From positions 2,068,001 to 2,132,000 of the forward strand of contig OY282368.1 in assembly GCA_958295725.1 (NCBI GenBank): a DNA stretch of 64,000 nucleotides, in the 5' to 3' direction. Positions 13,355-56,500 of this stretch are shown in pieces; the stretch's first letter is position 1, and each line of letters starts with the position of its first letter. The notes under the pieces were generated by a model. It saw only the letters and a list, made by a program, of their open reading frames with translations, was not told where the DNA came from and did no database searches. The position numbers and the translations under genes were made by a program. The DNA comes from an uncultured Alphaproteobacteria bacterium (lineage in GTDB: Bacteria; Pseudomonadota; Alphaproteobacteria; UBA2966).

Positions 13355-13386
13355 TCTCCTTGGCGAAGGTGACATGGGTCGATATG

Positions 13387-13580
13387 TGATCGGCGGCGGA
13401 AGGGACCGCACGGTCGTTACCGGGGAATCTCGCGAGCACTCGACAGGTATGCGCTTCGATGCCGAAACGCCGGAGCGACAACCCGAAGCGTAGAATCGTT
13501 CCGATCGATGAGGTCGAGCCGGCTTTTCTACGTCGCCTCGCGGGGCAGGCTCACTACACCGGCAGCGCCCACCACAAGCG
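13387..13580. repeat. 194-bp direct repeat, copy 1 (upstream of and into the 5' end of the two-gene module)
   Basis: The same 194 bases recur at 15240-15433, also in plus orientation and equal in length, with about seven substitutions by eye (about 96% identity). Copy 1 covers the upstream region and roughly the first 41 codons of the gene at 13459. The stop codon of the second gene of the module overlaps the first bases of copy 2. Confidence 0.9.
13404..13415. promoter_or_regulatory. Candidate operator palindrome GACCGCACGGTC
   Basis: A near-perfect 12-base inverted repeat lies 44 bases before the start at 13459. In the second repeat copy (15257-15268) a single C-to-T change makes it fully palindromic. 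The position would suit a repressor site, but this is only a guess from symmetry. Confidence 0.35.
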
Positions 13581-13896
13581 GAGCGCCGCCGATTACGACT
13601 TCAGCCCTTCTTCGGCCAACCCACGACCGCACAAGTCGCTCTGCGATGGCAACCGGACCGTCAAGTTGAACGAGGCGAAGGCGCTGTTCCACGAAGGCAT
13701 GAGGCGGGGTATGGTGAGCTCCTATCGTGAGGACGATCTGCCCAAGTACGTCTGGGCGGTCGACGACGAAGACCGCGCGTATGAGGCCAAGATCGAACGT
13801 GGCAGCAAAAACTACCATGGCTACGAGCTGAGCATCGACGACGATATGGGTGGACTGGTTGTCTGGGAGTGGAAACGAAGATGCCCGATCATCTGA
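13459..13896 (+). CDS. Conserved hypothetical protein, first gene of a two-gene module
   Basis: This is a 145-residue, soluble, basic-then-acidic protein with no signal peptide or membrane segment. I recall similar proteins of unknown function sharing YTGSAHHKR, a PRPHKSLCD block, LFHEGMRRGMVS, KYVWAVDDE and NYHGYELS; I cannot assign a fold or activity. The frame overlaps the next gene, which begins before this stop, a sign of translational coupling. The first 41 or so codons lie in a 194-bp repeat that recurs after the second gene. Antitoxin, immunity or small defence component are possible roles by context only. Confidence 0.75.
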   Translation: MPKRRSDNPKRRIVPIDEVEPAFLRRLAGQAHYTGSAHHKRSAADYDFSPSSANPRPHKSLCDGNRTVKLNEAKALFHEGMRRGMVSSYREDDLPKYVWAVDDEDRAYEAKIERGSKNYHGYELSIDDDMGGLVVWEWKRRCPII

Positions 13897-15242
13897 CGAT
13901 TTCGCTCTCCTCCGAGAGCCTCGATATCGGGCCGGCGGAAGAAAGGGCGACTTTCGGCCTTTTCGCTATTACGGCGAACGACAGACTGCTTACGGAGGGA
14001 ATGGATACCGAGTGCCGGGAGATCCGGCATGGCCCATATGTATCCGGCTATCCTCTGGCCGAATGGCTGGCGTGGAACTGGTGGCGAATCAGGTGGGACC
14101 TTGAACGTCCGTCTGACGGGAAAGCCGCGCGCCGCTGGGATTTCGCCCATCGGATGCCGACCGTCGGCGAAGGCTATGCTTGGCCCAACGTCACGATCCA
14201 TTCGGACGGGCTGCGGTCCATTTTCCATTCCGAACCGTCCCGGAACCCTGACACGGCCCTCTTCCGCTATATCGCCGCCGAGCGCCAGACGGTTCCGACG
14301 GACAGCCTCGAGGCCGCGGTTGACGGGTTCGTGGGAGACGTGCTGGCACGGCTTGAAGGTTCGGGGATTCGTGACACCAACCTTCACCGCCTTTGGGATG
14401 AATTGAAAGCGGAGCGGGAAGACGCCGACGTCACGCGCTTCCGGCGACTGGAGGCGCGACTCGGTCGCGACCCGGATGAAGTCGACGAAGACGTCATACG
14501 CTGTCGTCTTGATGACGCGACTGCGCTCGGGGAAGAGGCGCTGGGCGAAGTGGCCGCCGACGCCGCGTTTCACGGCAATGGCCCGGACGGCATGATGTCG
14601 GCGGACGGTATCGCCGACACCGCGGACAAGAACGGTTTCGACGCCAATCCGAGCGATGCCGTTCGGCTGGACGATGCGACGGACATGCCGGGCGCGACAG
14701 AGGCCGAGGCTTGGCGTATGGGGGAACATGCCGGGCGGACGGTCCGTGATCGAGAGGGTCTGGACGGTCAGCCCATTTCGGATGAGCAGCTCGCCGGTCT
14801 CGCGGGCACGACGCGGAACGTGATTTCGGAGAGAAACAAACGCTCCGACCGTATTTCTTTTGTGCTCGTCGACCGGGACGACGACCATGCTCGCGTGGCA
14901 CTCGGGTCGAAGTGGAAAACCGGGCGGCGGTTCGAGCTCGCCCGCTTGATCGGAGATCGTCTTCTCGGCGACTGGATGGGTCGTCCCGCCGAACGACTGT
15001 TTCCCGCGACGCGCACCTACAGCTACCGACAAAGGATGCAACGCGCGTTCGCCGCGGAGTTGCTGAGTCCATTCGCTTCGGTGGACGAAATGTTGGGTGG
15101 CGATTATTCGGAGGAAAAGCAGAACGATGCGGCCGAACGTTTCAACGTCTCGCCGATGACGATTCGGACGCAATTGGTGAACAACCATCGCATCGACCGG
15201 GAGGAGGCGCCGGACATCATCGGCCGTGGGGCCGGTTCATGA
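13881..15242 (+). CDS. Large partner of the two-gene module, ImmA/IrrE-like C-terminus with degenerate zinc site
   Basis: This 453-residue protein (an in-frame GTG at 13869 could add four residues) overlaps the preceding gene by 16 bases. The N-terminal half includes YPLAEWLAWNWWRIRW and GEGYAWPNVTI, which I do not recognise as a named domain. The C-terminal part resembles ImmA/IrrE peptidases in layout: a helix with RRFELARLIGDRLLG, then QRMQRAFAAELLSPF, then AERFNVSPMTIRTQL. The HExxH signature expected in the first helix is replaced by RLIGD, so zinc peptidase activity is doubtful. The middle (residues about 190-300) is acidic and probably flexible. The role is unknown; pairing with the small gene resembles a toxin-antitoxin or defence module. 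Confidence 0.75.
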   Translation: MPDHLTISLSSESLDIGPAEERATFGLFAITANDRLLTEGMDTECREIRHGPYVSGYPLAEWLAWNWWRIRWDLERPSDGKAARRWDFAHRMPTVGEGYAWPNVTIHSDGLRSIFHSEPSRNPDTALFRYIAAERQTVPTDSLEAAVDGFVGDVLARLEGSGIRDTNLHRLWDELKAEREDADVTRFRRLEARLGRDPDEVDEDVIRCRLDDATALGEEALGEVAADAAFHGNGPDGMMSADGIADTADKNGFDANPSDAVRLDDATDMPGATEAEAWRMGEHAGRTVRDREGLDGQPISDEQLAGLAGTTRNVISERNKRSDRISFVLVDRDDDHARVALGSKWKTGRRFELARLIGDRLLGDWMGRPAERLFPATRTYSYRQRMQRAFAAELLSPFASVDEMLGGDYSEEKQNDAAERFNVSPMTIRTQLVNNHRIDREEAPDIIGRGAGS

Positions 15243-15433
15243 TCGGCGGCGGAAGGGACCGTACGGTCATTACCGGGGAATCTCGCAAGCATTCGACAGG
15301 TATGCGCTTCGATACCGAAACGCCGGAGCGACAACCCGAAGCGTAGGATCGTTCCGATGGATGAGGTCGAGCCGGCTTTTCTACGTCGCCTCGCGGGGCA
15401 GGCTCACTACACCGGCAGCGCCCACCACAAGCG
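15240..15433. repeat. 194-bp direct repeat, copy 2 (truncated second module copy)
   Basis: This is the partner of 13387-13580. It includes the upstream region, the palindrome (15257-15268) and about the first 41 codons equivalent to the gene at 13459, then switches abruptly into an IS5-type transposase relic. It looks like the start of a second module copy that was destroyed. Confidence 0.9.
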
Positions 15434-15435
15434 AA

Positions 15436-15755
15436 CTCGCCAGGATTCGCTCGATATCCTTCGTCAAACGGCAGCAGCGCCCCATCCATGCAAAGGTCCG
15501 CTCCACGACGGAATAGTTCATCACCGTCGAATGCCGCGGAAACCCCGTTGGAAGCGCCCGCCACTGGCAGCCCGTCGCGAGAACGTACTGGATGGCATTG
15601 AACACTCCCCGCGCATCCGTCTCCCGCGGACGACCCAGGCGACTCCGCTTGGGAACCAGCGGATCGATCAGCGCCCATTCCTCGTCCGTCACGTCACTTT
15701 CGAAACCCCCAGCGACGCGCCTGTACTTCTCCCGAGTGGTCCAGCTCCAAGACAT
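15436..15755 (-). pseudogene. IS5-family transposase relic with internal deletion
   Basis: The N-terminal part (VTDEEWALIDPLVPK, GRPRETDARGVFNAIQY, GCQWRALPTGFP) is typical of IS5/IS1031-group transposases. It is joined directly to the C-terminal VVERTFAWMGRCCRLTKD motif that normally lies over 100 residues further on, so the catalytic DDE core is missing. The frame then runs into the 194-bp repeat on its antisense strand. It interrupts the second copy of the small gene of the two-gene module and could move only in trans, if at all. Confidence 0.8.
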
Positions 15756-15855
15756 GCAGCCCTCCAAGTCCGGTATCGTGACCAACTCGGAATACCACAT
15801 GGTGAAACCACTCAACACTTATGGATCAGAGTCCGAGGCATGATTACACTCCCGA

Positions 15856-20263: not shown

Positions 20264-21202
20264 TGTCCTGGTTCAGGACATATGAGACACGGGGGTCTCT
20301 TTGGCTGTCAGTGAGTGAAGGTACTGGGCGGGGGTGTGTCCGCCAAGGGCTTGGTGCGGTCTGAAGGTGTTGAATTCGTCGGCGAAGGCGTCGATCCATC
20401 GGTTGATGTCGTCGAGGTTGTCGTCGGGCAGGTCCCATGAGGCGTAGAACTCGTATCGCCATGCGCCGTTGTTACGCTCGACGTGTCCGTTGAGCTTGGG
20501 CGATCGGGGCGGGAGTTCGAACAGGTCGATGCCGCGGCGCTGGCATTCGGTCTCGAAGTCGGCCTTGAACTCGGAGCCTCCATCGACCTGGATGGCTTCG
20601 ATGGGGAAGGGCATGTCGGCCTGGAGCTTGTCGAGGAAGCGCCTGGCGTTGTGTGCGGTTGCGCGTCTCCAGGCCTGTGCGCAGGTCCACTTTGCGACGG
20701 GGTCATGGGCGGTGAACTGCTTGATGGCGGGCCGGGCTGTGTGTGGTGAGACGGTGAGGGTGTCGAGTTGGACGATCTCGCCGGGACTTGTGGGCTTGCG
20801 GCCCCTGGGCAGGCGTCTGGCGTATGGTCTGAGGCGCCGGGCGGCGCGCGGTCCGTTGCGGCGCAAGGTCGGGACCGGGGTGACGGCGCCGCGCTCCATG
20901 AGGGTCTTGAGGATGCGGCCCGTGGTGCTCTCGCTTACCGCGTGCCCGTTGCGTCGGAGCAGGACGGCGATCTTGGCCTTGCCCCACATGGGGTAGTCGG
21001 CGCGTGTCTCCCGGACCGCCGTCACCAGCGCCGCCGACCAAGTGGGCCGGCGCGGGGTGTGCGGGCGGCGCGAGCACGGCTTGAGGCGGTTGCGGTCCGC
21101 CAGCCTCTGCCACCGGTAGAGGGTCGATCTCGGCACGCCGACGGCGTTGGCGGCCGCTCGTGCGGTCAGGCCGTCGGCCCGGGCTTGGCGCCAGCGCTCA
21201 AG
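20264..21202 (-). mobile_element. IS481-like element, one end intact, other end replaced by a MITE
   Basis: The terminal sequence TGTCCTGGTTCAGGACATAT begins at 20264 and is shared with the other family members in this window. The transposase frame runs to 21202, where the terminal repeat of MITE copy A starts, so this element has lost the transposase N-terminus and its second end. Confidence 0.75.
20273..21202 (-). pseudogene. IS481/IS3-like transposase with rve integrase core, N-terminally truncated
   Basis: About 309 codons remain, or 287 from an internal ATG at 21136. There is an N-terminal helix-turn-helix (RWRQARADGLTARAAANAVG and PRSTLYRWQRL), a YPMWGKAKIAVLLRRNG segment, and the DDE core with Asp in VQLDTLTV, Asp in IQVDGGSEFKADFE and Glu in SPKLNGHVERNNGAWR. 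The C-terminus ends inside the terminal repeat. The start codon and first residues, known from relics at 27666 and 29077 to read MQTFGLPR, have been cut off at 21203 by MITE copy A. The catalytic core is intact, so an internal start could still yield a protein. Confidence 0.8.
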
Positions 21203-21419
21203 TGTCCTGGTTCAATACATATGAGACGCCGCGTGGACCGCTGGGAACGGCGCGTCAAGCCGCTTCGCGGCTCCTTCGCCGCGCTCCGGCCCTTCGGGTG
21301 ACCCGCCGTTCCCAGCGACCCCGAGGGCAGCCATGGCCATAATCAGACTTCTGGCCACGGCAAGACCGGATACCCACCGGCCCGATGGGCCGTGTCTCAC
21401 ATGTGTCCGAACCAGGATA
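21203..21419. mobile_element. MITE copy A (217 bp) with IS481-like terminal inverted repeats
   Basis: The ends are TGTCCTGGTTC and its inverse (GAACCAGGATA), matching the ends of the IS481-like elements nearby. The body has no gene. Nearly the same body occurs inverted at 23946-24133. Copy A has about 25-30 extra bases around 21338-21370. It is a non-autonomous element likely moved by the IS481-like transposase. Confidence 0.8.
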
Positions 21420-22109: not shown

Positions 22110-22688
22110 ATGGCTTACAGGGACCCCGAGGAGGGCCGCGCGCGCGACCGGGAACGGTTCCGGCGGCGCACCGCCGAGCGTATCGCCCAGGGCCTGTGCC
22201 CGAAGTGCGGCAAGGAGCCGCCCGAGCCCGAGCGCCGGCTGTGCGCGCCCTGCGCCGGGAAGCGGCGCGAGGCCGAACGCGTCCGCGACGCGCAGCGCCG
22301 GGCCGCCGGCAAGCCCCGCCACAGGAACCCCGAGACGGAACGCGCGCGCGAGCGGCAGCGCACCGCCGAGCGTATCGCCCGAGGCTCATGCACGCGCTGC
22401 GGCAAGGCCCCGGCCGAGCCGGAACGCACCGTCTGCGCGCCCTGCGCCGAGAAGCGACGTGCGGCCGAACGCGCCCGCTACGCGAAGGCCAAGGCCGCCG
22501 GCAAGCTCTACGGCGGGCGCGACCCGAAGGAGCGGCGGCGCAACGCGCGCGGCACGGCCAGGCGGCTCTATGAAGCGCGTCGCGAGGCCGGCCTGTGCAC
22601 CCGGTGCGGCTTGCGCCCGCCGGTCGAGGGCGGCACGGCCTGCGAGCCGTGCCGCGAGGCGCGGCGCGCGGGCGAACGCCGGCAGTGA
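22110..22688 (+). CDS. Basic protein with three repeated zinc-ribbon units
   Basis: This 192-residue, Arg-rich protein consists of three units, each a basic helix rich in Arg, Glu and Ala (RTAERIAQGL type) followed by two Cys pairs: CPKC...CAPC, CTRC...CAPC and CTRC...CEPC, with 13-16 residues between the pairs. Each unit could bind one zinc ion and contact nucleic acid through the basic helix. I do not recognise a named family. The next gene, 12 bases downstream, carries two units of the same type, so the pair probably arose by duplication and works together. It could be a regulator or a nucleic-acid-binding accessory of the element. Confidence 0.65.
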   Translation: MAYRDPEEGRARDRERFRRRTAERIAQGLCPKCGKEPPEPERRLCAPCAGKRREAERVRDAQRRAAGKPRHRNPETERARERQRTAERIARGSCTRCGKAPAEPERTVCAPCAEKRRAAERARYAKAKAAGKLYGGRDPKERRRNARGTARRLYEARREAGLCTRCGLRPPVEGGTACEPCREARRAGERRQ

Positions 22689-23945: not shown

Positions 23946-24133
23946 TGTCCTGGTTCGGACACATGTGAGACACGGTCCATCGGGCCGGTGGGTATATGGC
24001 CATGGCTGCCCTCGGAGTCGTCGGGAACTGCGGGTCACCCGAAGGGCCGGAGCGCGGCGAAGGAGCCGCGAAGCGGCTTGACGCGCCGTTCCCAGCGGCC
24101 CACGCGGCGTCTCATATGTTCCGAACCAGGACA
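23946..24133. mobile_element. MITE copy B (188 bp), inverted relative to copy A
   Basis: The ends are TGTCCTGGTTC and GAACCAGGACA, both matching the IS481-like termini. Its reverse complement matches copy A over almost the whole length apart from one indel. Relaxase homology begins immediately after its last base, so it marks the 5' breakpoint of that gene. Confidence 0.8.
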
Positions 24134-25988
24134 CGACCGGGCGGTGGCGCATCTCGCCGAGCGCGAAGCGGTGTTCTCGCGCACCGATCTGCTGGCCGCC
24201 ATGCTCGCTTGGCGCCCCGGCGCGGTGGCGATCGGCGAGGCCGAGGACGCGGTAACACGATTGGAGAAGACCGGGACGTTACACGCCGCGAACCTGCCCG
24301 TCCCGGGAGACCCGCTCACCACCGACAAGGCGGTCGCCGACGAGAAGGAGACCGTCGCCCTGATGAACGCGGGCCGGGACCGGGGCGCCGCCGTCATGCA
24401 CGGCCGCGCCGTCGACAAGGCGCTGCGCAACGGACCCCTCACGGCCGGTCAGGAGGACGCGGTGAAGCTGATCCTGTCGGCGAAGGACCGGACGGTGGGC
24501 GTCCAGGGCTACACGGGGACCGGAAAGACCGCCATGCTGAACCGCGCCCGCGCGCTCCTGGAGAAGCGCGGGTTCGAGGTCAGGGGCCTCGCCCCGTCGG
24601 CCTCGGCCGCGCGCACCCTGGAGAACGAAGCCGGCATCCGGAGCGAGACCCTGCAACGGTTCCTCGCCCGCAACGCCGGCGTCGCCGAGGGACGGCTCAC
24701 GGCCAGGGGCGAACGCCAGATGCGCGCCGCGTTCAAGAAGACGGTTCTCGTGGTGGACGAGGGCTCGCTTGCCTCCACCGTCCAGGCCCGCGACCTACTC
24801 CGGATCGCCAATGTCTTGCGCATTCCCCGAGTCGTGCTGGTCGGCGACGAGAAGCAGCTCGATGCGGTGGACGCCGGCAAACCGTTCGGGCAGTTGCAGC
24901 GAGCGGGCCTGAAGACGGCGACCATGGACGAGATCATGCGCCAGCGCGACGCGGGTCTGAAGGCCGCTGTCGAGGCGAGCCTCGCGGGCGACGTGAAGAA
25001 GGCCTTCGAGAAGCTCGGTCCCAACGTCGCGGAGGTGAAGGCGGACAACATCGCCGGCGCGGCCGCCGCGCGCTGGCTGAAACTATCGGTCTCCGAGCGC
25101 GAGAACGCCGGGTTGATGGCCCCGAGCCACGCGCTGCGAGAGGAGATCAACGACATCATCCGGGACGGCGCGATCGCGGGACCGGCGCTGGGGACGGAGC
25201 GCCTGGTCTCGCGCGGCTACACCAACGCGGAGAAGGCGCTCGCCGCCAACTACGCGCCCGGCGACGTGGTTGCGTTCCACCGCGCCTACAAGCGACTCGG
25301 GGTCGGGAAGGGCGACGAGTTGCGCGTCGTCGGCATCGACCGGAGCGCTGACGCCGTGAAGCTGATGGGGAAGGACGGCGGGACCGTCTCCTGGGACCCC
25401 TACAGGCTTGCCGGCGGGACCGGCGGGGTCGAGGTCTATCGCTCCGACGCCATCGAGCTCCGCGCGGGCGATCGCATCCGATGGACCCGGAACGACGCGC
25501 GGCACGAGCTCGTCAACAGCGCCACGGCGGAGGTGGCTGCGGTAGGGGATCGGGCGGTGACGCTCCGCCTCGAGGACGGCCGGGTCCTCGACATGCGCAA
25601 GGACGATCCGCAACTGCGTCACGTCGACCGTGCCTGGGCGTCCACCGTCCATGCCTTCCAGGGCCGCACCGTCGATACCGTGATAGCGGCGATGGAAGCC
25701 AATCGCCCCCACCTGACCACGCAGAAGACACTCTACGTCGAGATCAGCCGGGCCCGCGACCGCGCCGAACTGGTGACCGACGACCGGGACGCGCTGCGCG
25801 AGCGGCTGGAGGCCGCCACCGGAGAGCGCGTCGCGGCGCTGGAAGCGGTCGAGCCCGAACGGGAAAAGAGCAGAGGGCCGGAACCCGCCCACGGCCGCGG
25901 CCGGGAGGAAGGTAGGTCGGAACCGGGACACCGGACGCCGGAGCCGGAGAAGGTTCGTGAGCCGCGCGAGGTCGAGATGGAGATGTAG
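24134..25988 (+). pseudogene. MobF-type relaxase/helicase, copy 1, N-terminal relaxase domain missing
   Basis: About 617 codons of the helicase half of a TraA/TrwC-type conjugative relaxase remain. Features are the Walker A GVQGYTGTGKTAML, a Walker B-like TVLVVDEGSLAS, VVLVGDEKQLDAV, the PRHLT-type C-terminal RecD motif LTTQKTLYVEISRARDRAELVT and a Pro/Glu-rich tail. Nothing equivalent to the HxH relaxase domain lies upstream, because MITE copy B abuts the first homologous base. The frame stays open back through the MITE to 23892, which would add a spurious N-terminus. It shares about 1 kb with copy 2 at 31216-32230 in inverted orientation. It could make helicase without nicking. Confidence 0.8.
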
Positions 25989-41500: not shown

Positions 41501-44500
41501 GCGCCGTGCTCCAGTCCGTCGCCGTGAAGGTCAGCGACGACGGCGACGCCGCGCCCTCGCTCGTATCCAGACTGGAGACCGTCACCGTCACCGCCGCCGA
41601 AGGCTGCGTCCGCAGCGCCACCGTGAACGTCGCCGTCCCGCCATCCTCCGTCGCCTGACCCGTGACTCCGTTCGTCGGGACGAGCGCCAGCCCGTACTCG
41701 TTGTCCGCGTTCACCGCATAGACCGTGACGTCGTCGAGGCCGTCGTAGTTGGTGTCCACCGTGCTCGTCGTGTTCACCGCCAGCGTGACGGTGTAGTCCT
41801 GGTCGCCGTCGGCGGGATTGGTGGGGGCGTCGTCCACGCCGGTCAGCGTCACCGTCTGCGCCGTGTTCCAGTTCGAGTCCGTGAATGTCAGCGACGACGG
41901 CGACACCATCCCTTCCCCCGTGTCCGAACTCGTCACGCCGAGCGCCACGTTCCCCGTCGGCTTGCTCGACAGCGCCACCGTGAACGCCGCCGTCCCGCGA
42001 TCCTCCGTCGTCCGCAGCCGCGACGTCGCCGACGGCGCCGGCGACACCGCGAACCCCGCCGTGTCGTCATCGGTAATGGTCAGCGACGCCCCGGTGACGG
42101 TCATCGTCTCCGAATTGGCGGCGGCCTGGCTGTTCGCGGCCGTGCCCGCCACCGTCACATCGCTGTCGGCGGCGTCCACGTCGTTGTCCACCGCGGTGAT
42201 CGTCGCCGTGTCCGCGCTCGTCGTCGAACCCGCCGCGATCGCGATCGTCGCCCCCGCCCCCGACGCCACCGAATAGGCGTTCGCCAACGGCGTCACCGTC
42301 ACCGTCGTCGCCGCGCTCGACGGGTGCGAGAGCGTCGCGCTCACCGTCGTCGATCCGCCCTCCAGGATCGACGACGACGCCACCGACAGCGTCACCCCCG
42401 GCGCCGCGTCGTCGTCCGCGATCGTCAGCGTCACGGCGGAGGGGTCCGTGACCCCCTGGGTGTTGGACGCCGAACCCGAGACCGTCACCGACTTGTCCGG
42501 CGCATCCGTCGTGTCGTTCACCGCCGTAATCGTCACCGTCCCCGCGCTCGCCGTCGAACCCGCCGCGATCGTCAACGTGTTCGCACTCGACAGCGTGAAG
42601 CCGCTCCCCGAAGCCGACACCGTCACCGTCGTCGCCGCGCTCGAGGCCAGGTTCAGACGCGCCGTCACCGTCGATACCCCACCGTTCTCCGAGATCGACG
42701 TGGACGACAGGACCAGCGTCGCCAGCGGCGGACCCTCGTCGTCGCGGATCGTCAGCGTCACGGCGGACGGGTTCGCCACGTTGTTGCCGCCCGCCGCCGT
42801 CCCCGAGACCGTCACCCGTATGTTCGGCTCGTCGTCGTTGTTGTTCACCGCCGTGATCGTCACCGTCCCCGCGCTCGCCGTCTGCCCGGCCGCGATGGTC
42901 AGCGTGTTCGCCGTGCTCAGCGTGAAGTCGGTCCCCGACCCCGGCGATGCCGACACCGTGAGCGTCACCGCCGCGCTCGACGCCCCCGACAGCGTCGCCG
43001 TCACCGTCGTCGCGTTGCCCGTCCCGCTCTCGTCGATCGTCGCCGGCGACAGGACCAGCGCCACCGTCGGCAGCGCCTCGTCGTCGGTGATGGTCAGCGT
43101 CACGCTCGACGGCGCCGACACCCCGTTACCCCCGGCCGCCGTCGCCGAGACCGTCACCGACTTGTTCGGCGCATCCGTCGTGTTGTTCACCGCCGTAATC
43201 GTCACCGTCCCCGCGCTCGCCGTCGAACCCGCCGCGATCGTCAACGTGTTCGCACTCGACAGCGTGAAATCCGTCCCCGACCCCGGCGATGCCGACACCG
43301 TGAGCGTCACCGCCGCACTCGACGGGCGGTTCAGCGTCGCCGTCACCGTCGATACGTTCGACGCCCCGCTCTCGTCGATCGACGACGCCGACAACGCCAG
43401 CGTCGCCTCCGGCAACGCCTCGTCGTCGGTGATGGTCAGCGTCACGCTCGACGGCGTCGACACCCCGTTACCCCCGGCCGCCGTCGCCGAGACCGTCACC
43501 GACTTGTCCGGCGCGTCGGTCGCATTGTCCGTCGCCGTAATCGTCACCGTCCCCGCGCTCGCCGTCGAACCCGCCGCGATCGTCAACGTGTTCGCACTCG
43601 ACAGCGTGAAATCCGTCCCCGACCCCGGCGATGCCGACACCGTGAGCGTCACCGCTTCGCTCGACGGGCGGTTCAGCGTCGCCGTCACCGTCGATACGTT
43701 CGACGCCCCGCTCTCGTCGATCGACGACGCCGACAACGCCAGCGTCGCCTCCGGCAACGCCTCGTCGTCGGTGATGGTCAGCGTCACGTCCGACGGCGCC
43801 GCCACCCCGTTACCCCCGGCCGCCGTCGCCGAGACCGTCACCGACTTGTTCGGCGCATCCGTCGTGTTGTCCGTCGCCGTAATCGTCACCGTCCCCGCGC
43901 TCGCCGTCGAACCCGCCGCGATGGTCAGCGTGTTCGCCGTGCTCAGCGTGAAGTCGGTCCCCGACCCCGGCGATGCCGACACCGTGAGCGTCACCGCTTC
44001 GCTCGACGGGCGGTTCAGCGTCGCCGTCACCGTCGATACGTTCGACGCCCCGCTCTCGTCGATCGACGACGCCGACAACGCCAGCGTCGCCTCCGGCAAC
44101 GCCTCGTCGTCGGTGATGGTCAGCGTCACGCTCGACGGCGCCGACACCCCGTTACCCCCGGCCGCCGTCGCCGAGACCGTCACCGACTTGTCCGGCGCAT
44201 CCGTCGTGTCGTTCACCGCCGTAATCGTCACCGTCCCCGCGCTCGCCGTCGAACCCGCCGCGATCGTCAACGTGTTCGCACTCGACAGCGTGAAATCCGT
44301 CCCCGACCCCGGCGATGCCGACACCGTGAGCGTCACCGCTTCGCTCGACGGGCGGTTCAGCGTCGCCGTCACCGTCGATACGTTCGACGCCCCGCTCTCG
44401 TCGATCGACGACGCCGACAACGCCAGCGTCGCCTCCGGCAACGCCTCGTCGTCGGTGATGGTCAGCGTCACGCTCGACGGCGCCGACACCCCGTTACCCC

Positions 44501-47500
44501 CGGCCGCCGTCGCCGAGACCGTCACCGACTTGTTCGGCGCATCCGTCGTGTCGTTCACCGCCGTAATCGTCACCGTCCCCGCGCTCGTCGTCGAACCCGC
44601 CGCGATCGTCAACGTGTTCGCACTCGACAGCGTGAAATCCGTCCCCGACCCCGGCGATGCCGACACCGTGAGCGTCACCGCCGCGCTCGACACCCCCGAC
44701 AGCGTCGCCGTCACCGTCGATACGTTCGACGCCCCGCTCTCGTCGATCGACGACGACGACAACGCCAGCGTCACCGTCGGCGTCGCCTCGTCGTCGGTGA
44801 TGGTCAGCGTCACGCTCGACGGCGCCGCCACCCCGTTACCCCCGGCCGCCGTCGCCGAGACCGTCACCGACTTGTCCGGCGCATCCGTCGTGTCGTTCAC
44901 CGCCGTAATCGTCACCGTCCCCGCGCTCGTCGTCGAACCCGCCGCGATGGTCAGCGTGTTCGCACTCGACAGCGTGAAGTCGGTCCCCGACCCCGGCGAG
45001 GCCGACACCGTGAGCGTCACCGCCTCGCTCGACGCGCGGTCCAGCGTCGCTGTCACCGTGCTCGACCCGGGGTTCGTCCCGTCGTGCTCGTCGATCGTCG
45101 CCGGCGACAACGCCAGCGTCACCTCCGGCAGGTCCTCGTCGTCGGTGATGGTCAGCGTCAGGCTCGACGGCGCCGACACCCCGTTACCCCCGGCCGCCGT
45201 CGCCGAGACCGTCACCGACTTGTCCGGCGCGTCGGTCGCGTTATCGACCGCCGTCACCGTCACCGTCCCCGCGCTCGTCGTCGAACCCGCCGCGATGGTC
45301 AACGTGTTCGCCGTGCTCAGCGTGAAGTCGGTCCCCGACCCCGGCGATGCCGACACCGTCACCGTCACCGCCTCGCTCGACACCCCCGACAGCGTCGCCG
45401 TCACCGTCGATACGTTCGACGCCCCGCTCTCGTCGATCGACGACGGCGACAACGCCAGCGTCACCTCCGGCAGGTCCTCGTCGTCGGTGATGGTCAGCGT
45501 CACGCTCGACGGCGCCGACACCCCGTTACCCCCGGCCGCCGTCGCCGAGACCGTCACGCTCTTGTTCGGCGCATCCGTCGTGTTGTTCACCGCCGTAATC
45601 GTCACCGCGCCCGTGCTCGCCGTCTGCCCGGCCGCGATGGTCAGCGTGTTCGCCGTACTCAGCGTGAAGTCGGTCCCCGACCCCGGCGAGGCCGACACCG
45701 TGAGCGTCACCGCCGCGCTCGACGCGCGGTCCAGCGTCGCCGTCACCGTCGATACGTTCGACGCCCCGCTCTCGTCGATCGACGACGCCGACAACGCCAG
45801 CGTCACCTCCGGCAGGTCCTCGTCGTCGGTGATGGTCAGCGTCACGCTCGACGGCGCCGCCACCCCGTTGCCCCCGGCCGCCGTCGCCGAGACCGTCACC
45901 GACTTGTCCGGCGCATCCGTCGTGTCGTTCACCGCCGTAATCGTCACCGTCCCCGCGCTCGTCGTCGCCCCCGCCGCGATGGTCAGCGTGTTCGCCGTGC
46001 TCAGCGTGAAGTCGGTCCCCGACCCCGGCGATGCCGACACCGTGAGCGTCACCGCTTCGCTCGACGCGCGGTTCAGCGTCGCCGTCACCGTGGAGACATT
46101 GCCCGCCCCGCTCTCGTCGATGCTCGAAGACGACAACGCCAGCGTCACCTCCGGCAGGTCCTCGTCGTCGGTGATGGTCAGCGTCACGTCCGGCGGCGGC
46201 GCCACCCCGTTGCCCCCGGCCGCCGTCGCCGAGACCGTCACCTCCTTGTCCGGCGCATCCGTCGTGTCGTTCACCGCCGTAATCGTCACCGTCCCCGCGC
46301 TCGCCGTCTGCCCGGCCGCGATGGTCAGCGTGTTCGCGCTCGACAGCGTGAAGTCGGTCCCCGTGCCCGGCGCCGCGTCCACCGTCACCGTCACCGCCTC
46401 GCTCGACGCGCGGTCCAGCGTCGCCGTCACCGTCGTCACCCCGCTACTCTCCGAGATCGACGTGGACGACAGCACCAGCGTCACCTCCGGCAGGTCCTCG
46501 TCGTCCGTCAGCGTCAGCGCCCCGCCGCTCACCGCCATGGTCGTCCCGTCGGCCGTCGCCCGGTCGTTCGTTATCGTCGCCGTCACCGTCGTCGAACGAC
46601 CGGCCGTCCCCTGGTGAACGTCGTCGTTCGCCGCCGTGACCAGCACCGTGTCCGCGGCGTTCGCCGTCTCGCCCGCCGCGATGACGATGGTCGTGTCCGA
46701 ACCCACCGTGTAGAAGCCCGTCACCGCCGACACCGTCACCGTCGTCGCCGCGCCCGACGGATGCGACAGCGTCGCCGTCACCGTCGATACACCGCCGTTC
46801 TCCGAGATCGACGACGGCGACAGCGCCAGCGTCACCCCCGGCGCCCCGTCGTCGTCCGTCGTCGTCACCGACACGTCCACGTTCGCCAGCCTGTTGTAGC
46901 CGGCGTCGCCGCTCGACGGATCGAGCCGCACATCCCAGGTCACCGTGCCGTCGTCGATGTCGTCGTCCACCCCGGTCACCGTCACCGTCTGCGTCGTGCT
47001 CCAGTCCGTCGCCGTGAAGGTCAGCGACGACGGCGAGACCGTTCCCTCGCCCGTATCCCGGCTCGTCACCGATACCGTCACCGCCTGCGACGGCGACGGC
47101 GGCGTCAGCAGCGCCACCGTGAAGGTCGCCGTCCCTCCGCCCTCCGTGACCTGCCCCGTCACCGAACCCACGTCCAGCCCGTATTCGTTGTCCGCGTTCA
47201 CCGCGTACACCGTGACCGGGGAGCTCGCGAGCGCGTCGTACTTGGCGTCCAACGTGCTCGTCGTGTTCACCGTCAGGGTGACGGTGTAGTCCTTGTCGGT
47301 GTCGGCGTCGGCGTCGTCCACGCCGGCCAGCGTCACCGTCTGCGCCGTGTTCCAGGTCGTCGCCGTGAAGGTCAGCGACGACGCGGACACCGCCCCTTCC
47401 GTCGTGTCCGAGCTCACCACGCCGAGCACCACGTCTCCCGTCGGCTCGCTCTCCAGCGCCACCGTGAACGTCGCCGTCCCGCCATCCTCCGTCGTCCGCA

Positions 47501-50500
47501 ACCGCGACGATGTCGACGTCGCCGGCGACACCGCGAACCCGGCCGTGTCGTCGTCGGTCACGGTCAGCGTCACGCTCGACGGCGCCGACACCCCGTTGCC
47601 GCCCGAGACCGTCGCCGAAACCGTCACCGTCTCGTCCGTCTCGTCCACCGCGTCGCCCACCGCCGACACCGTCACCGTCCCCGCGCTCGTCGTCGAACCC
47701 GCCGCGATGGTCAACGTGTTCGCACTCGACAGCGTGAAGTCGCCCGCCGCCGCGGTCACGCCCGTCGCCCCCACCGTCACCGTCACGGCCTCGCTCGACG
47801 CCCCCGACAGCGTCGCCGTCACCGTGGATACGCCGCCCGTCTCCGAGATCGACGTCGGCGACAACGCCAGCGCCACCGTCCGCAGGGCCTCGTCGTCCGT
47901 GATCGTGATCGTGGCCGAGTTCACCGTCAGGCTGCCCGACGAGCCGCTCACCGTCACCGTCTCGTCGGTCTCGTCCACCGCGTCGTCCGTCGGCGTCAGC
48001 GTGAATGTGCCGGTCTTGCTCTGTGCCTCCGCGGCGATCGTAATGTCGAAGTCCGTCACCGCCGCGAAGTCCACCGCCGTCGCCGTCCCGCTCCCCGCCA
48101 CGCTCACGGTCACCGCCGTCGCCCCGGCGAACCGGATCGTGCCATCCACCGTGGCGGTCACCGTGATCGTGGTCGCCCCGTCGCCCTCGCCCACGCTGTT
48201 GTCGTTCACCGTCAGCGTGATCGAGGGCGTCGCGTCGTCGTCCGTCAACGTGATCGTGGCCGAGTTCACCGTCAGGCTGCCCGACGAGCCGCTCACCGTG
48301 ATCGTCTCGTTCGTCTCATCGAACGCGTCGTTCGTCGGCGTCAGCGTGAATGTGCCGGTCTTGCTCGCCGCCCCCGCGGCGATCACGATGTCGAAGTCCG
48401 ACACCGCCCCGAAGTCCACCGCCGTCGCCGTGCCGCTACCCCCCACGCTCACGGTCACGGTCGTGGGATCGACGAACCGGCTCGCGCCATCCACCGTGGC
48501 GGTCACCGTGATCGTGGTCGCCCCGTCGTCCTCGGCCACGCTGTTGTCGTCCACCGTCAGCGTGATCGCGGTCGGGGCGTCGTCGTCGTCCGTCAACGCG
48601 ATCGTGGCCGAGCTCACCGTCAGGCTGCCTGACGAGCCGCTCACCGTGATCGTCTCGTTCGTCTCGTCGAACGCGTCGTTCGTCGGCGTCAGCGTGAAGG
48701 TGCCGGTAGCGCTCGCGTCGCCCGCTTCGATCTCGATGTCGAAGTCCGACACCGCCGCGAAGTCCACCGCCGACGCCGTGCCGCTCCCCGCCACGCTCAC
48801 CGTCACCGTCGTGAGCGTGATGAACCGCGTCCCGCCGTCCACCGTGGCGGTCACCGTGATGGTGGTCGCCCCGTCGTCCTCGGCCACGCTGTTGTCGTCC
48901 ACCGTCAAGGTGATCGCGGTCGGCGTCGCGTCGTCGTCCGTCAACGCGATCGTGGCCGAGCTCACCGTCAGGCCGGGCGAGGCGCCGTACACCGTCACCG
49001 TCTCGTCGGTCTCGTCCAGTACGTCGTTCGTCGGCGTCAGCGTGAAGTCGCTGGCGCCGCTCGCCGCCCCCGCGGCGATCACGATCTCGAAGACCGACAC
49101 CGCCGCGAAGTCCACCGCCGTCGCCGTGCCGCTGGTCTCCCTCACGAGCACCTCCACCGTCGTGGCCGCGGCGAACCGGGTGGTCCCGTCCACCGTCGCG
49201 GTCACCGTGATGGTGGTGGCCCCGTCGCCCTCGCTCACGCTGTTGTCACTCACCGTCAAGGTGATCGAGGTCGGCGCCGCGTCGTTGTCCGTCAACGTGA
49301 TCGTGGCCGAGTTCACCGTCAGGCTGCCCGACGAGCCGCTCACCGTCACCGTCTCGTCGGTCTCGTCCACCGCGTCGTTGGCCGGCGTCAGCGTGAAGCT
49401 CCCGGTCTTGCTCGCCGCCCCGGCGGGGATCGTAATGTCGAACGACGACACCGCCGCGAAGTCCACCGCCGTCGCCGTGCCGCTACCCCCCACGCTCACC
49501 GTCACCGTCGTGTCCTCGGCGAACCGGGTGGTCCCGTCCACCGTGGCGGTCACCGTGATCGCGGCCGCCCCGTCGCCCTCGCCCACGCTGTTGTCGTCCA
49601 CCGTCAGCGTGATCGAGGTCGGCGCCGCGTCGTCGTCCGTCAGGCCGATCGTGGCCGCGGTCACCGTCAGACTGCCTGACGCGCCGCTGACCGTGATCGT
49701 CTCGTCGGTCTCGTCCACCGCGTCGTCCGTCGGCGTCAGCGTGAAGCCCGCGGTGTCGCTCGCCGCCCCCGCCGCGATCTCGATGTCGAACGCCTCCACC
49801 GCGGCGAAGTCCACCGCCCCCGCCGTGCCGCTGCCCGCCACGCTCACCCGCACCGTCTTCGCCTCGGCGAACCGGGTCGTTCCGTCCACCGTGGCGGTCA
49901 CCGTGATCGAGGTCGCCCCGTCGCCCTCGCCCACGCTGCTGTCACTCACCGTCAGCGTGATCGCGGTCGGGGCCGCGTCGTCGTCCGTCAGGCTGATCCT
50001 GGCCGAGTTCACCGTCAGGCCGGTCGACGTGCCGCGCACCGTGATCGTCTCGTCGGTCTCGTCCACTACGTCGTTCGTCGGCGTCAGCGTGAAGTTCGCG
50101 GTACCGCTCGCGTCGCCCGCGGCGATCATGATGTCGAACGCCGACACCGTGGCGAAATCCACCGCTGTCGCGGCGCCGCTGCCCGCCACGCTCACCGTCA
50201 CCGTCGTGGCCGAGCCGAGCGTCGTCGAGCCGTCCAACGTGGCGGTCACCGTGATCGTGGTGGCCCCGTCGACCTCGCCGACGCTGTTGTCGTTCACCGT
50301 CAGCGTGATCGAGGTCGGCGTGCCGTCGTCGTCCGTGAGGCTGATCGTGGCCGCGTTCACCGTCAGGCCGGTCGAAGTACCGCTGACCGTGATGGTCTCG
50401 TCGGTCTCGTCGTCCGAGTCGTCCGTCGGCGTCAGCGTGAAGGTTCCGGTACCGCTCGCCGCCCCGGCGGGGATCGTAATGTCGAACGACGACACCGCGG

Positions 50501-53500
50501 CGAAGTCCACCGCCCCCGCCGTGCCGCTCCCCGCCACGCTCACGCTCACCGTCTTGGCCTCGGCGAACCGGGTCGTGCCGTCCACCGTGGCGGTCACCGT
50601 GATCGTCGTCGCCCCGTCGCCCTCGCCCACGTCGCCGTCGTCCACCGTCAGCGTGATCGTGCCCGGCGCGTCGTCGTCGTCCGTGATCGTCCCATCGACC
50701 CTTAGCTCATTGGTGACGACCCCGCTGGGCGACGAGATCGTCGCGTTCGCCGCGTTGCTCCACGTCACCACCACCGTCTCGTTCGACTCGTCCACCGTGT
50801 CGCCCGTCACCAACACGCTAAAGGTCCGGCTGGTCGTCCCCGCCGCGAAGGTCAGCGTGCCGGCGGTGATGGCCGTGTAGTCCGTCCCCGAAGTGGCCGT
50901 CCCCAGGCCCGCGTCCGCATACTGCACCGTCACCTCGCGTCCGGAGGCGGCGCTCAGGGTCACCGTATACGTCAGCGCCGCGGAGCCACTGTCGCCCTCC
51001 GTCACGCTCGGCGAGCTGATCGACAGCGTCGGCGTCGCGTCGTTGTCCGTGATCGTCCCGGTCCCGGTGCCCGCCGTGGTCGAGACCGCCGCGTTCACCG
51101 GATCCTTCAGCCGCACTTTCACCGTCTCGTCCGCCTCGTCCAGAACGTCGCCCGTCACCGCCACGTCGAAGGTCCGGCTGGTCGTCCCCGCCGCGAAGGT
51201 CAGCGTGCCGACGGTGAGCGCCGTGTAGTCCGTCCCGGAAGTCGCGGTGCCGGTCCCGGTGTCGGCGTAGTCCACCGTCACCTCGCGTTCGGAGGCGGCG
51301 CTCAGGGTCGCCGTGAAGGTCAGGTCCGTCGAGCCGCTGTTGCCCTCGGTCACGCTCGGCGAGTCGATGGAGAGCATCGGCGCGGGATCGTCGTCGGTGA
51401 TCGTCAGCGTCGCGTCGGACGGATTCGCCGCCCCGTCGCCGCCCGCGACCGTCGCCGAGACCGTCACCGACTTGTCCGGCGCGTCGGTCGCGTCATCGAC
51501 CGCCGCGACCGTCACGGTTCCGGTGCTCGCCGTATCCCCCATCGCGATGGTGAGCGTATTCGCGCTCGACAGGCCGAAGTCGCCCGACACCGCCGGGGAC
51601 ACCGCCGCCGCCGACACCGTGACCGTCGTCGCCTCGGTCGCCGCCTTGTCCAGCGTCGCCGTCACCGTGGCCACCCCGCCGTTCTCCGAGATCGACGCTG
51701 GCGACAGCGCCAGCGACACGACCGGCTTGTCGTCGTCGATGACCGTGACCGTCACCGCGAGCAGGCGCGTCGCCGGCGTGTCCGCCACGTCCCCGACCCC
51801 ATAGTTGGCCACCGCGTATCTGATCTGCTTGGTCTCGTCCTGGAGGTCGCTGTCCCCGAGGGCCTTGACGGTCACCGTCTGCGGCGTGCTCCAGTCCGAC
51901 GGCGTGAACGAGAGGTTGTACGGGTACGTGTGGGCGGAGTTCAGATCGAGCTCGGAATCGGAGCGATTGAGACCGACCCATGTCGTCGTCGTCATCCCCC
52001 CGGGAGGGGGCTCGGAGTCCAGAACCACGGTGAACGTCGCGCCGGTGGTGTCCTGCTCGGTCACCGTGATGGAGGTGGGGTTGAAGGTCACGCCTGCCGT
52101 GTCGTCGTCGGTCAGCGTCAGCGTCACGTTCGACGGGTCCGCGACACTGTTGCCGCCCGCCGCCGTGCCCGACACCGTCACCGACTTGTCGGCCACGTCC
52201 ACGTCGTTGTCGCTCGCCGTCACCGTCACCGCGCCGGCGCTGGTCGTCGAACCCGACGCGATGGTGAGCGTCTTCGCCGTGCTCAGATCGAAGTCCGCGG
52301 CGACCGCCCCCGTTCCCGCCGCCGCGCCTACCGTCACCGTCACCGCCTCGCTCGACTTGCCGTTCAGCGTCGCCGTCACCGTCGAGACCCCGCCGTCCTC
52401 CGAAATCGATGTCGGCGACAGGACCAGCGTCACGGTGGGCGTAGCTTCGTCGTCCGTGATCGTCAGCGTCGCGTCCGACGGCGCCGCCACCCCGTTACCC
52501 CCGGCCGCCGTCGCCGAGACCGTCACGCTCTTGTCCGGCGCATCCACATCGTTGTCGTTCGCCGTCACCGTCACCGTCCCCGCGCTCGTCGTCGAACCCG
52601 CCGCGATGGTCAGCGTCGTCGCCGTGCTCAGCGTGAAGTCGGTCCCCGACCCCGGCGATGCCGACACCGTGAGCGTCACCGCCGCGCTCGACACATCCGA
52701 CAGCGTCGCCGTCACCGTGCTCGACCCGGGGTTCGTCCCGTCGTGCTCGTCGATCGACGCCGGCGACAGAACCAGCGCCACCGTCGGCAACGCCTCGTCG
52801 TCGGTGATGGTCAGCGTCACGTCCGACGGCGCCGACACCCCGTTACCCCCGGCCGCCGTCGCCGAGACCGTCACCGACTTGTCCGGCGCATCCGTCGTGT
52901 CGTTCACCGCCGTAATCGTCACCGTCCCCGCGCTCGTCGTCGAACCCGCCGCGATGGTCAACGTGTTCGCGCTCGACAGCGTGAAGTCGGTCCCCGACCC
53001 CGGCGATGCCGACACCGTGAGCGTCACCGCCGCGCTCGACGCGCGGTCCAGCGTCGCCGTCACCGTGCTCGACCCGGGGTTCGTCCCGTCGTGCTCGTCG
53101 ATCGTCGCCGGCGACAGAACCAGCGTCACCTCCGGCAGGTCCTCGTCGTCGGTGATGGTCAGCGTCACGTCCGACGGCGCCGACACCCCGTTACCCCCGG
53201 CCGCCGTCGCCGAGACCGTCACCGACTTGTCCGGCGCGTCGGTCGCATTGTCCGTCGCCGTCACCGTCACCGTCCCCGCGCTCGTCGTCGAACCCGCCGC
53301 GATCGTCAACGTGTTCGCACTCGACAGCGTGAAATCCGTCCCCGACCCCGGCGATGCCGACACCGTGAGCGTCACCGCCGCGCTCGACGCACCCGACAGC
53401 GTCGCCGTCACCGTCGAGACGTTCGACGCCCCGCTCTCGTCGATCGACGACGGCGACAACGCCAGCGTCACCTCCGGCAACGCCTCGTCGTCGGTGATGG

Positions 53501-56500
53501 TCAGCGTCACGTCCGACGGCGCCGCCACCCCGTTACCCCCGGCCGCCGTCGCCGAGACCGTCACCGACTTGTCCGGCGCATCCACATCGTTGTCGTTCGC
53601 CGTCACCGTCACCGTCCCCGAACTCGTCGTATCCCCCGCCGCGATGGTCAACGTGTTCGCACTCGACAGCGTGAAATCCGTCCCCGACCCCGGCGATGCC
53701 GACACCGTGAGCGTCACCGCCTCGCTCGACGCGCGGTCCAGCGTCGCCGTCACCGTGCTCGACCCGGGGTTCGTCCCGTCGTGCTCGTCGATCGTCGCCG
53801 GCGACAACGCCAGCGTCGCCTCCGGCAGGTCCTCGTCGTCGGTGATGGTCAGCGTCACGCTCGACGGCGCCGTCGCCCCGTTACCCCCGGCCGCCGTCGC
53901 CGAGACCGTCACCGACTTGTCCGGCGAATCCACATCGTTGTCGTTCGCCGTTACCGTCACCGTCCCCGCGCTCGTCGTCGAACCCGCCGCGATGGTCAAC
54001 GTGTTCGCACTCGACAGCGTGAAATCCGTCCCCGACCCCGGCGATGCCGACACCGTGAGCGTCACCACCGCGCTCGACACCCCCGACAGCGTCGCCGTCA
54101 CCGTCGATACGTTCGACGCCCCGCTCTCGTCGATCGTCGCCGGCGACAACGCCAGCGTCACCTCCGGCGTCGCCTCGTCGTCGGTGATGGTCAGCGTCAC
54201 GTCCGACGGCGCCGCCACCCCGTTACCCCCGTCCGCCGTCGCCGAGACCGTCACGCTCTTGTTCGGCGCATCCGTCGTGTCGTTCACCGCCGTAATCGTC
54301 ACCGTCCCCGCGCTCGTCGTCGAACCCGCCGCGATGGTCAACGTGTTCGCGCTCGACAGCGTGAAGTCCGTCCCCGACCCCGGCGATGCCGACACCGTGA
54401 GCGTCACCGCCTCGCTCGACGCGCGGTCCAGCGTCGCCGTCACCGTGCTCGACCCGGGGTTCGTCCCGTCGTGCTCGTCGATCGTCGCCGGCGACAACGC
54501 CAGCGTCACCTCCGGCAACGCCTCGTCGTCGGTCAGCGTCAGCGCCGCCCCGGTCACCGTCACGGTCTCCGAATTGGCGGCGGCCTGGGCGTTGGCCGCC
54601 GTGCCCGTCACCGTCGTCGAACGCCCGCCGCTGCCCTGGTGCACGTCGTCGTTCATCGCCGTGACCAGCACCGTGTCCGCGGCGTTCGCCGTCTCGCCCG
54701 CCGCGATCTCGATGGTCGTGTCCGAACCCACCGTGTAGAAGCCCGTCACCGCCGACACCGTCACCGTCGTCGCCGCGCTCGACGGATGCGACAGCGTCGC
54801 CGTCACCGTCGAGACGTTGCCCGCCCCGCTCTCGGCGATCGACGACGGCGACAGCGCCAGCGTCACCCCCGGCGCATCCTCGTCGTCGGTAATCGTCAGC
54901 GTCGCGTCGGACGGAGCCGCCGCCCCGTTGCCGCCCGCGGACGTGGCCGAGACCGTCACCGACTTGTCCGGCGCGTCGGCCGCGTTATCGACCGCCGTCA
55001 CCGTCACCGCGCCCGAACTCGTCGTATCCCCCGCCGCGATGGTGAGCGTATTCGCGCTCGACAGGCTGAAGTCGGCCGCCGCCGCCGGGGCCACCGCCGC
55101 CGCCGACACCGTGACCGTCGTCGCCTCGGTGGCCGTCCGGTCCAGCGTCGCCGTCACCGTGGCCACCCCGCCGTTCTCCGAGATCGACGACTCCGACAGC
55201 GCCAGCGACACGATCGGCTTGTCGTCGTCGATGACCGTGACCGTCACCGCGACCTCGTTCGTCACCCCGCCCGCATAGCCGGCCACCGTGTACCTGATCT
55301 CCTTGGTGTCGTTCCGGATGTCGCTGTCCGCGGAGGCCGTGACGGTCACCGTCTGCGCCGTGCTCCAGTTCGTCGGGTCGAACGAGAGGTTGTACGGGTA
55401 CGTGCGGACGCCGTTCAGATCGATCTCGGCGTCGGAGCGACCGAGGCCGACCGTCGTCGTCCCGGAGGGGGGCTCGGAGTCCAGGACCACGGTGAACGTC
55501 GCGCCGGCGGCGTCTTGCTCGGTCACGGTCAGGGCGGTGGGGTCGAAGGTCACGCCCGCGGTGTCGTCGTCCGTGGTGCTCACCCCGACGTTGGCGTTGG
55601 GGACGGTGACGTCGCTGCGGTAGTGGGCGTCTCCCGCCGGCCCGCTGTCGGGATTCAAGACGACGTTCCAGGTCACGTCGCCGTCGTCGACGTCGTCGTC
55701 GACACCGGTCACCGTCACCGTCTGCGCCGTGTTCCAGACGCCCGGCGCGAAGGTCAGCGACGACGGCGACACCGTGCCCTCGCTCGCGTCCCCGCCCGTC
55801 ACCGTCACCGTCACCGCCGCCGTCGGCCGCGTCGCCAGCTTCGCCGTGAAGGTCGCCGTCCCGCCCGCCTCCGTCGCCTGCCCCGTCACCGCGCTCACCG
55901 TCAGCCCGGCGACGTCGTCGTCCTCGTTGGACACCGACACGGTCTGGGTAACCACACGGTTATACGGCAGGTTACCGGCGCCGGTCTCGCCCGGGTCCAC
56001 CGTCACCCGGCAAATCTGGTCGTGGTCGACGACATCGTCGTCCTTGCCCCGCACCGTCACCGTATGCGGCGAATTCCACAGGCTCGCCGCGGCCGCCGAG
56101 GCGTCGCCGCCGGTGGGCGCCATGGCGACGGTCCCGGAGACGCCATACGTCGCGCCGCCGTCCGCCGACACCTCGCATTCGGAGGTGTCCTGGCTGGTAA
56201 CCAGTACATTCACGGTCTGGCTCGGGTTGGACGTCAGGCGCACCGTGAAGCTATCCGTGCCGCCCGCCTCCGTGGTCGCGGTCGAACCGCCGCTCTCGAC
56301 CACGGTCAGCCCACCTTCGTCGTCCGTGACGGTCAGCGTCGCGTCGGGCGGCGCCTTCACGTCGCCGCTCGCCGTTGCCGAGACCGTTACGGTCTTGTCC
56401 GGCGCGTCGGCCGCGTTATCGACCGCCGTCACCGTCACCGTCCCGGTGCTCGCCGTCTCCCCCGTCGCGAAGGTCAGCGTGTTCGCCGTGCTCAGCGTGA

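What the first reader, a model, noticed from the sequence alone, without database searches (positions are those of the whole stretch)
13459..15242. Overlapping two-gene module of unknown function, candidate defence or toxin-antitoxin system
A 145-residue protein and a 453-residue protein overlap by 16 bases in one operon. Neither has an assigned function that I know; the large one has a C-terminus laid out like ImmA/IrrE. It sits at the start of an accessory island that also holds HicAB and HigBA-type pairs and transposase relics. This is my best candidate for an undescribed system in the window.
Basis: partly seen in the sequence, partly recalled or inferred. Interest (0 to 1): 0.75.

Follow-up and report, generated by a model that had tools for sequence, protein, structure and literature searches.

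The report
Candidate toxin–antitoxin pair with dead-protease antitoxin
Two overlapping bacterial genes, found together in hundreds of unrelated bacteria and named in no database searched, look like a small RNA-cutting toxin and a large protector protein built partly from a protease whose cutting site has been replaced by other fixed residues.

Summary
Gene A (13459-13896, 145 aa) overlaps gene B (13869 GTG or 13881 ATG to 15242, 457/453 aa). Neither is named by Pfam, NCBIfam or PADLOC. They are a near-obligate pair: B has at least 456 relatives in species genomes; among the best 80 loci A lies directly upstream in about 65-67; of 20 loci found by searching for intact A, all 20 carry B. In 14 loci A is mutated, truncated or missing while B is intact; the reverse was never seen, which is how toxin and antitoxin genes decay. 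B's C-terminal half has the CapP/IrrE (ImmA) protease fold (Z 9-11.6), but every zinc/catalytic residue is replaced, by a fixed R359/D363/Q388 set in nearly all members. B's N-terminal domain resembles CdiI immunity proteins (Z 6.2). A's weak fold matches are mostly RelE/YoeB/CDI-type RNase toxins (best Z 4.4). Best reading: a RosmerTA-like toxin-antitoxin module with a probable BECR-fold RNase toxin (A) and a large pseudo-ImmA antitoxin/sensor (B). Toxicity, neutralisation and phage defence are untested. The module sits at the left edge of a ~51.6-kb island inserted in a TRAP-transporter operon.

The parts
13459..13896 (+). Gene A, 145 aa: candidate toxin, probable BECR-fold RNase
   Evidence: 64-sequence family with invariant Y33, H39, C62, P95, W99, E109 and near-invariant K40, R56, K59, D63, S87, Y119-H120-G121-Y122, W138; AF2 pLDDT 89.9; weak fold matches mostly RelE/YoeB/CDI toxins
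13869..15242 (+). Gene B, 457 aa from GTG (453 aa from ATG 13881): candidate antitoxin/sensor
   Evidence: 68-sequence family; AF2 pLDDT 95.0, pTM 0.93; in the genomes searched, intact A never occurs without it
13884..14342 (+). B residues 6-158: N-terminal domain resembling CdiI immunity proteins and Whirly/PUR single-strand-binding proteins
   Evidence: VIA-align: 5ffp_A CdiI Z 6.2 (117 aligned), 8cht PURA Z 5.2, 4ntq_B CdiI Z 4.8, 4koq WHY3 Z 3.8
14718..15236 (+). B residues 284-456: ImmA/IrrE/CapP-like domain (zinc-peptidase-like plus HTH parts, without the GAF-like domain)
   Evidence: 7t5t CapP Z 11.6, PprI/IrrE Z 9.1-9.6, Mtb PrpR Z 8.4-8.6; hhalign to true ImmA probability 94%, E 1e-7
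14943..14957 (+). Codons of B R359-L-I-G-D363, at the place of HExxH
   Evidence: R 94/94, D 87/94 (5 E) in the aligned members
15030..15032 (+). Codon of B Q388, at the place of the third zinc ligand (Glu) of ImmA
   Evidence: Q 94/94; register against real ImmA proteins
13376..13580 (+). Left copy of a 205-bp direct repeat: A leader plus first ~40 codons of A; starts where collinearity with same-genus genomes ends
15229..15433 (+). Right copy of the repeat (94%)
15312..15433 (+). Remnant of a second A gene: start codon ATG changed to ATA, cut after ~40 codons at an IS5-type transposase relic (15381-15818, minus strand)

Best explanation
A and B are a two-protein toxin-antitoxin module. A is the toxin, most likely a BECR-fold (RelE/CDI-type) ribonuclease that stops translation. 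B is its large antitoxin: the N-terminal CdiI/Whirly-like domain probably binds A and blocks it, while the C-terminal ImmA/IrrE/CapP-like domain has lost its protease site and kept the pocket as a fixed R/D/Q site, probably to sense a stress or phage-linked ligand (single-stranded DNA is one candidate, by analogy with PprI and CapP) that makes B release A. Shown here: pairing, decay that spares B, folds as predicted models, loss of the zinc site, patchy spread. Inferred: toxicity, RNase activity, which domain binds A, the trigger, and a phage-defence role.
For: Pairing: about 65-67 of 80 loci with intact A directly upstream of B; 20 of 20 intact-A loci have adjacent B. Decay: A broken or missing with B intact in L038, L043, L046, L071, L074, L089, L103, L108, L113, L076, L101, G408, G429, G451; the reverse in none; where B is lost (G359 second locus, window copy 2), A is cut too. 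Folds: A's rows with Z >= 2 are mostly RNase toxins; B N-terminus resembles CdiI, C-terminus CapP/IrrE. Zinc site replaced by R359, D363, Q388. Correlation of A and B distances, r 0.67, 0 of 2000 permutations. Mobility: 8 plasmids, relatives across several phyla, empty site in same-genus genomes. Precedents: ImmA-domain antitoxins in RosmerTA (PMC10440598), ssDNA sensing by PprI/CapP (PMC10904395), an IrrE-like fold without HExxH that binds CoA in PrpR (PMC6765138).
Against: No toxicity data. A's fold matches are weak (best Z 4.4; Foldseek found nothing with E < 1 in PDB), so the RNase assignment rests on the pattern among weak hits. B N-terminus Z 6.2 is under the level the tool calls safe. 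B is three times A's size, unusual for type II antitoxins. The 80 loci were chosen by B score, which favours intact B; the A-first search is smaller (20 loci). Some stops may be assembly errors. Solitary B genes exist (three in tandem in L101), so B may have a function of its own.
Confidence: 0.68

Rival explanations
1. A toxin-antitoxin pair in which A is not a BECR RNase but another enzyme (for example one using H39, C62, E109 and H120) that hits a different target.
For: Invariant H, C and E and a near-invariant YHGY motif look catalytic; Foldseek finds no confident PDB or viral match for A.
Against: Most of A's weak structural matches are RelE/YoeB/CDI toxins, and the helix-plus-strand-meander layout fits BECR (BECR definition in PMC3482391).
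Confidence: 0.2
2. A regulatory or sensing complex, not a toxin system: B is a PrpR/IrrE-like ligand-binding regulator and A its small accessory subunit.
For: B's fold is shared with PrpR, which lost HExxH and binds CoA (PMC6765138); solitary B genes exist.
Against: The sporadic, mobile distribution and the repeated loss of A but never of B alone do not fit a housekeeping regulator; neighbours are not conserved.
Confidence: 0.08
3. B is the toxin/effector and A the antitoxin or immunity protein.
For: The larger gene is often the effector in defence pairs; one B frame runs on into what looks like a nuclease-like tail (L069; read by eye, not tested).
Against: B persists without intact A in 14 loci, while intact A without B was not found; B resembles immunity proteins and a dead protease.
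Confidence: 0.04

Closest known systems
RosmerTA (RmrT toxin / ImmA-domain antitoxin RmrA; PMC10440598)
   Same: Two-gene module, ImmA-fold antitoxin paired with a different small protein, often toxin gene first, linked to phage defence.
   Different: Here the ImmA zinc-protease residues are all replaced, a CdiI/Whirly-like domain is added in front, and the partner A belongs to no named family.
CapP / IrrE / PprI / ImmA metallopeptidases (Pfam PF06114, M78)
   Same: Zinc-peptidase-like plus HTH fold (Z 9.1-11.6; hhalign 94%).
   Different: HExxH and the third ligand are lost; window B is not hit by PF06114 and relatives only weakly (best E 2e-4); no repressor gene beside it.
CdiA-CT / CdiI toxin-immunity pairs (PDB 5t87, 5ffp, 4ntq, 7m5f)
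   Same: A's best structural match is a CDI toxin; B's N-terminus matches CdiI proteins.
   Different: A is a free 145-aa protein with no secretion or filament region, nearly always beside its partner; matches are weak and by fold only.
RelE/YoeB/HigB RNases (classical type II TA)
   Same: Small toxin gene overlapping its antitoxin gene; possible shared BECR fold.
   Different: Antitoxin is a 450-aa multidomain protein, not a small DNA-binding one; no sequence similarity found.
M. tuberculosis PrpR (6cyj, 6cz6; PMC6765138)
   Same: IrrE-like fold whose HExxH is not conserved and whose cavity binds a ligand: a precedent for pseudo-ImmA as sensor.
   Different: PrpR is a transcription factor with an Fe-S cluster and GAF-like domain; neither was recognised in B.

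Membership tests
RosmerTA | Two adjacent genes, one an ImmA-domain antitoxin, the other a toxin | tested here: inconclusive
   Pairing and ImmA fold met; toxin role inferred only
RosmerTA | ImmA domain with protease site | tested here: not met
   HExxH and third ligand replaced in 94 of 94 members
RosmerTA | Toxicity, neutralisation and antiphage activity | not testable with these tools
   needs experiments
ImmA/IrrE (Peptidase_M78) proteases | IrrE-like fold | tested here: met
ImmA/IrrE (Peptidase_M78) proteases | HExxH plus distal Glu zinc site | tested here: not met
ImmA/IrrE (Peptidase_M78) proteases | Score over Pfam gathering cut-off | tested here: not met
   window B not hit by PF06114; 29 of 68 relatives weakly, best E 2e-4
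Type II toxin-antitoxin | Co-oriented, overlapping two-gene operon that spreads as a unit | tested here: met
Type II toxin-antitoxin | Toxin gene not kept without antitoxin gene | tested here: met
   20 of 20 intact A with B; 14 loci with A lost and B kept; 0 reverse
Type II toxin-antitoxin | Small labile, DNA-binding antitoxin | tested here: not met
   B is 453-457 aa; only an internal IrrE-type HTH-like region
Type II toxin-antitoxin | Toxicity and neutralisation | not testable with these tools
   needs experiments
BECR-fold RNases | Helix followed by a 4-stranded meander | tested here: inconclusive
   predicted helix 70-82, short strands at 86-95, strands 97-101, 107-112, 118-124; best Z 4.4
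BECR-fold RNases | RNA cleavage | not testable with these tools
   needs assay
CDI toxin-immunity systems | Toxin at the C-terminus of a secreted CdiA with a CdiB partner | tested here: not met
   A is a separate 145-aa ORF; no large CdiA-type ORF carries it in the window or relatives read

The most novel reading that the evidence does not exclude
A widespread, undescribed toxin-antitoxin/defence class in which an ImmA protease has been turned into a non-proteolytic sensor: a conserved R/D/Q pocket replaces the zinc site and, through a CdiI-like domain in the same protein, holds or frees an RNase toxin when a ligand binds.
Probability: 0.4. Interest if true: 0.78.

Novelty: new variant of a known kind. 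Interest (0 to 1): 0.62.

Why it matters
Hundreds of bacterial species carry this pair as unnamed proteins. If A is a toxin and B its keeper, it adds a toxin family and shows a protease domain rebuilt into a sensor inside an antitoxin. The fixed R/D/Q pocket makes the question of what triggers ImmA-type antitoxins directly testable by mutation and ligand binding.

Tried and rejected
Pfam, NCBIfam and PADLOC on both window proteins gave no real hit; family-wide scans gave only weak M78 for B and nothing consistent for A. PDB sequence searches were empty. Foldseek for A found nothing in PDB or BFVD, so the toxin fold rests on VIA-align's second look. No relatives in 50,697 phages; two in IMG/VR; A in IMG/VR by its own motifs none. 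A hit in G006 is a chance match to a kinase-like protein. Real ImmA proteins (L021-L023) were weak hits and served as the HExxH comparison. Defence enrichment was tested only crudely: 290 PADLOC models hit among 146 neighbour proteins against 69 among 142 random proteins; one protein can hit many models and the genomes differ, so this is not a rate. An automatic count gave two intact-A-without-B cases, L099 and L104; both are B frames called too long upstream, not missing B. L095 has a stop near the A start and is left as ambiguous.

Full report
What is there. Gene A (13459-13896, 145 aa) and gene B (to 15242) lie on the + strand. Neither protein is named: Pfam, NCBIfam and PADLOC gave nothing meaningful.

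It is a real, widespread pair. A profile scan of 84,980 species genomes confirmed 456 relatives of B; the best 80 were kept, mostly from Proteobacteria but also Binatota, Nitrospirales, Acidobacteria, Verrucomicrobia, a cyanobacterium and others, as the record titles state. An A gene with the same orientation lies directly upstream in 73 of 80 by a loose count; with a strict test of intact A it is 63, plus L099 and L104 where only B's start was called too far upstream, plus L077 whose A is complete with another start and L095 which is ambiguous: about 65-67. The median overlap is 22 nt. Distances among A and among B correlate (r 0.67, 0 of 2000 permutations), though shared ancestry of hosts contributes.

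Distribution is sporadic. Full-length B occurs in 7 of 385 genomes sampled from the class, the own genome included (G000, G025, G079, G272, G273, G299, G359; the other three matches in that table are short C-terminal ones, two of them true ImmA proteins), on 8 of 72,556 plasmids, two of them with a truncated B, in no phage record and on two IMG/VR contigs. The own genome has a second, diverged pair at G000:C1 2236141-2237759.

Decay spares B. Searching for A first (class and phylum samples) gave 20 loci with intact A, all with adjacent B. A is damaged or missing while B is intact in L038, L043 and L108 (stops), L046, L071, L074, L089, L103 (truncations), L113 (deletion joining A's start to B), L076 and L101 (no A), and in G408, G429, G451. 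No locus had intact A with broken or missing B. In the two places where B is lost, a second locus of G359 and the second copy in the window, A is cut as well. This is what is expected if A is harmful without B. Caveats: the 80 loci were picked by B score; some stops may be assembly errors; the A-first sample is small.

What B is. The model is confident (pLDDT 95.0, pTM 0.93). Residues 284-456 match Thauera CapP (Z 11.6), PprI/IrrE (Z 9.1-9.6) and M. tuberculosis PrpR (Z 8.4-8.6); hhalign against true ImmA proteins gives 94%. In the register of real ImmA proteins, AHELGH reads ARLLGD in B: first His is R359 (94/94), catalytic Glu is mostly Leu, second His is D363 (87/94, 5 Glu), and the distal Glu ligand is Q388 (94/94). 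So the zinc protease is gone, but the replacement is conserved, which points to a new use of the site and not to decay. Residues 6-158 match CdiI immunity proteins (5ffp_A Z 6.2; 4ntq_B Z 4.8) and PUR/Whirly proteins; this is moderate evidence.

What A may be. The model is good (pLDDT 89.9). Foldseek found no match. In VIA-align's second look 13 entries reached Z 2; most are RNase toxins: 5t87_E CDI toxin (4.4), RelE 2khe, 9g12 and 3g5o, YoeB 7v6w and 7v5y, CDI 7m5f, and 7vd7_A, a toxin-antitoxin complex. Scores are low, so this is a lead. The layout, helix then strand meander, agrees with the BECR fold as defined in PMC3482391. Invariant H39, C62, W99, E109 and near-invariant K40, R56, K59, H120, Y122 look like an active site. 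That the independent matches for A and for B's N-terminus both point to toxin-immunity pairs strengthens each.

Context. Same-genus genomes follow the window up to 13357-13376; in G001 the operon then continues with dctQ/dctM of a TRAP transporter. Here dctM is at G000:C1 2133579, so an island of about 51.6 kb separates them, with the module at its very left edge. GC is 62.3% in the module against 68.3% in the window. A 205-bp repeat (94%) at 13376 and 15229 carries the A leader and 40 codons, so a second A copy was cut at an IS5-type relic.

Neighbours. Some loci sit by defence genes: dptFGH on the Massilia plasmid, SspD and SspB-like (L060), Cas10 and Csx1 (L048), HmaB (L070), a PtuA/AriA-like ATPase (L071), a type II methyltransferase (L052). 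Against random regions, neighbours hit 290 PADLOC models versus 69, a crude sign only; many loci have ordinary neighbours.

Mechanism and comparison. The closest system is RosmerTA, where ImmA-domain antitoxins pair with varied toxins and several defend against phages (PMC10440598). PprI and CapP are activated by ssDNA (PMC10904395), and PrpR is an IrrE-like protein without HExxH that binds CoA (PMC6765138). An older survey already linked COG2856 (ImmA) fusions with RelE and PIN toxins (PMC2701414). From these I infer that B holds A and that its pseudo-ImmA pocket senses a ligand. Membership in RosmerTA is not claimed because the protease site is absent. No paper describing this pair was found in the searches made; subscription journals are mostly not held, so a description may exist.

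Noticed in passing
window 13360-64000 and on to about G000:C1 2132950: A ~51.6-kb island splits a TRAP-transporter operon (dctP | dctQM) that is contiguous in a same-genus genome (G001).
   Followed up: partly
window 42600-61000: Long region of many diverged internal repeats, probably one or more giant repeat proteins near the right side of the island.
   Followed up: no
window 22161-22544: Two tandem 192-nt units (74% alike) inside a small Cys-rich, zinc-ribbon-like ORF.
   Followed up: no
window 21202-21417 and 23948-24134: Two nested inverted-repeat pairs (140 and 57 nt, 91-94%) enclosing about 2.6 kb.
   Followed up: no
L101 4615-8997: Three B genes in tandem with no recognisable A, possible solitary antitoxins.
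   Followed up: partly
L069 6001-8313: B reads on in frame into a ~330-aa tail that looks nuclease-like (PD-(D/E)XK) by eye; not tested.
   Followed up: no
L032 and L033 (Acidithiobacillus caldus plasmids): Truncated B directly upstream of an N-6 DNA methylase gene on two plasmids.
   Followed up: no
G000:C1 2236141-2237759: Second, diverged A-B pair in the same genome (about 32% identical in B).
   Followed up: partly
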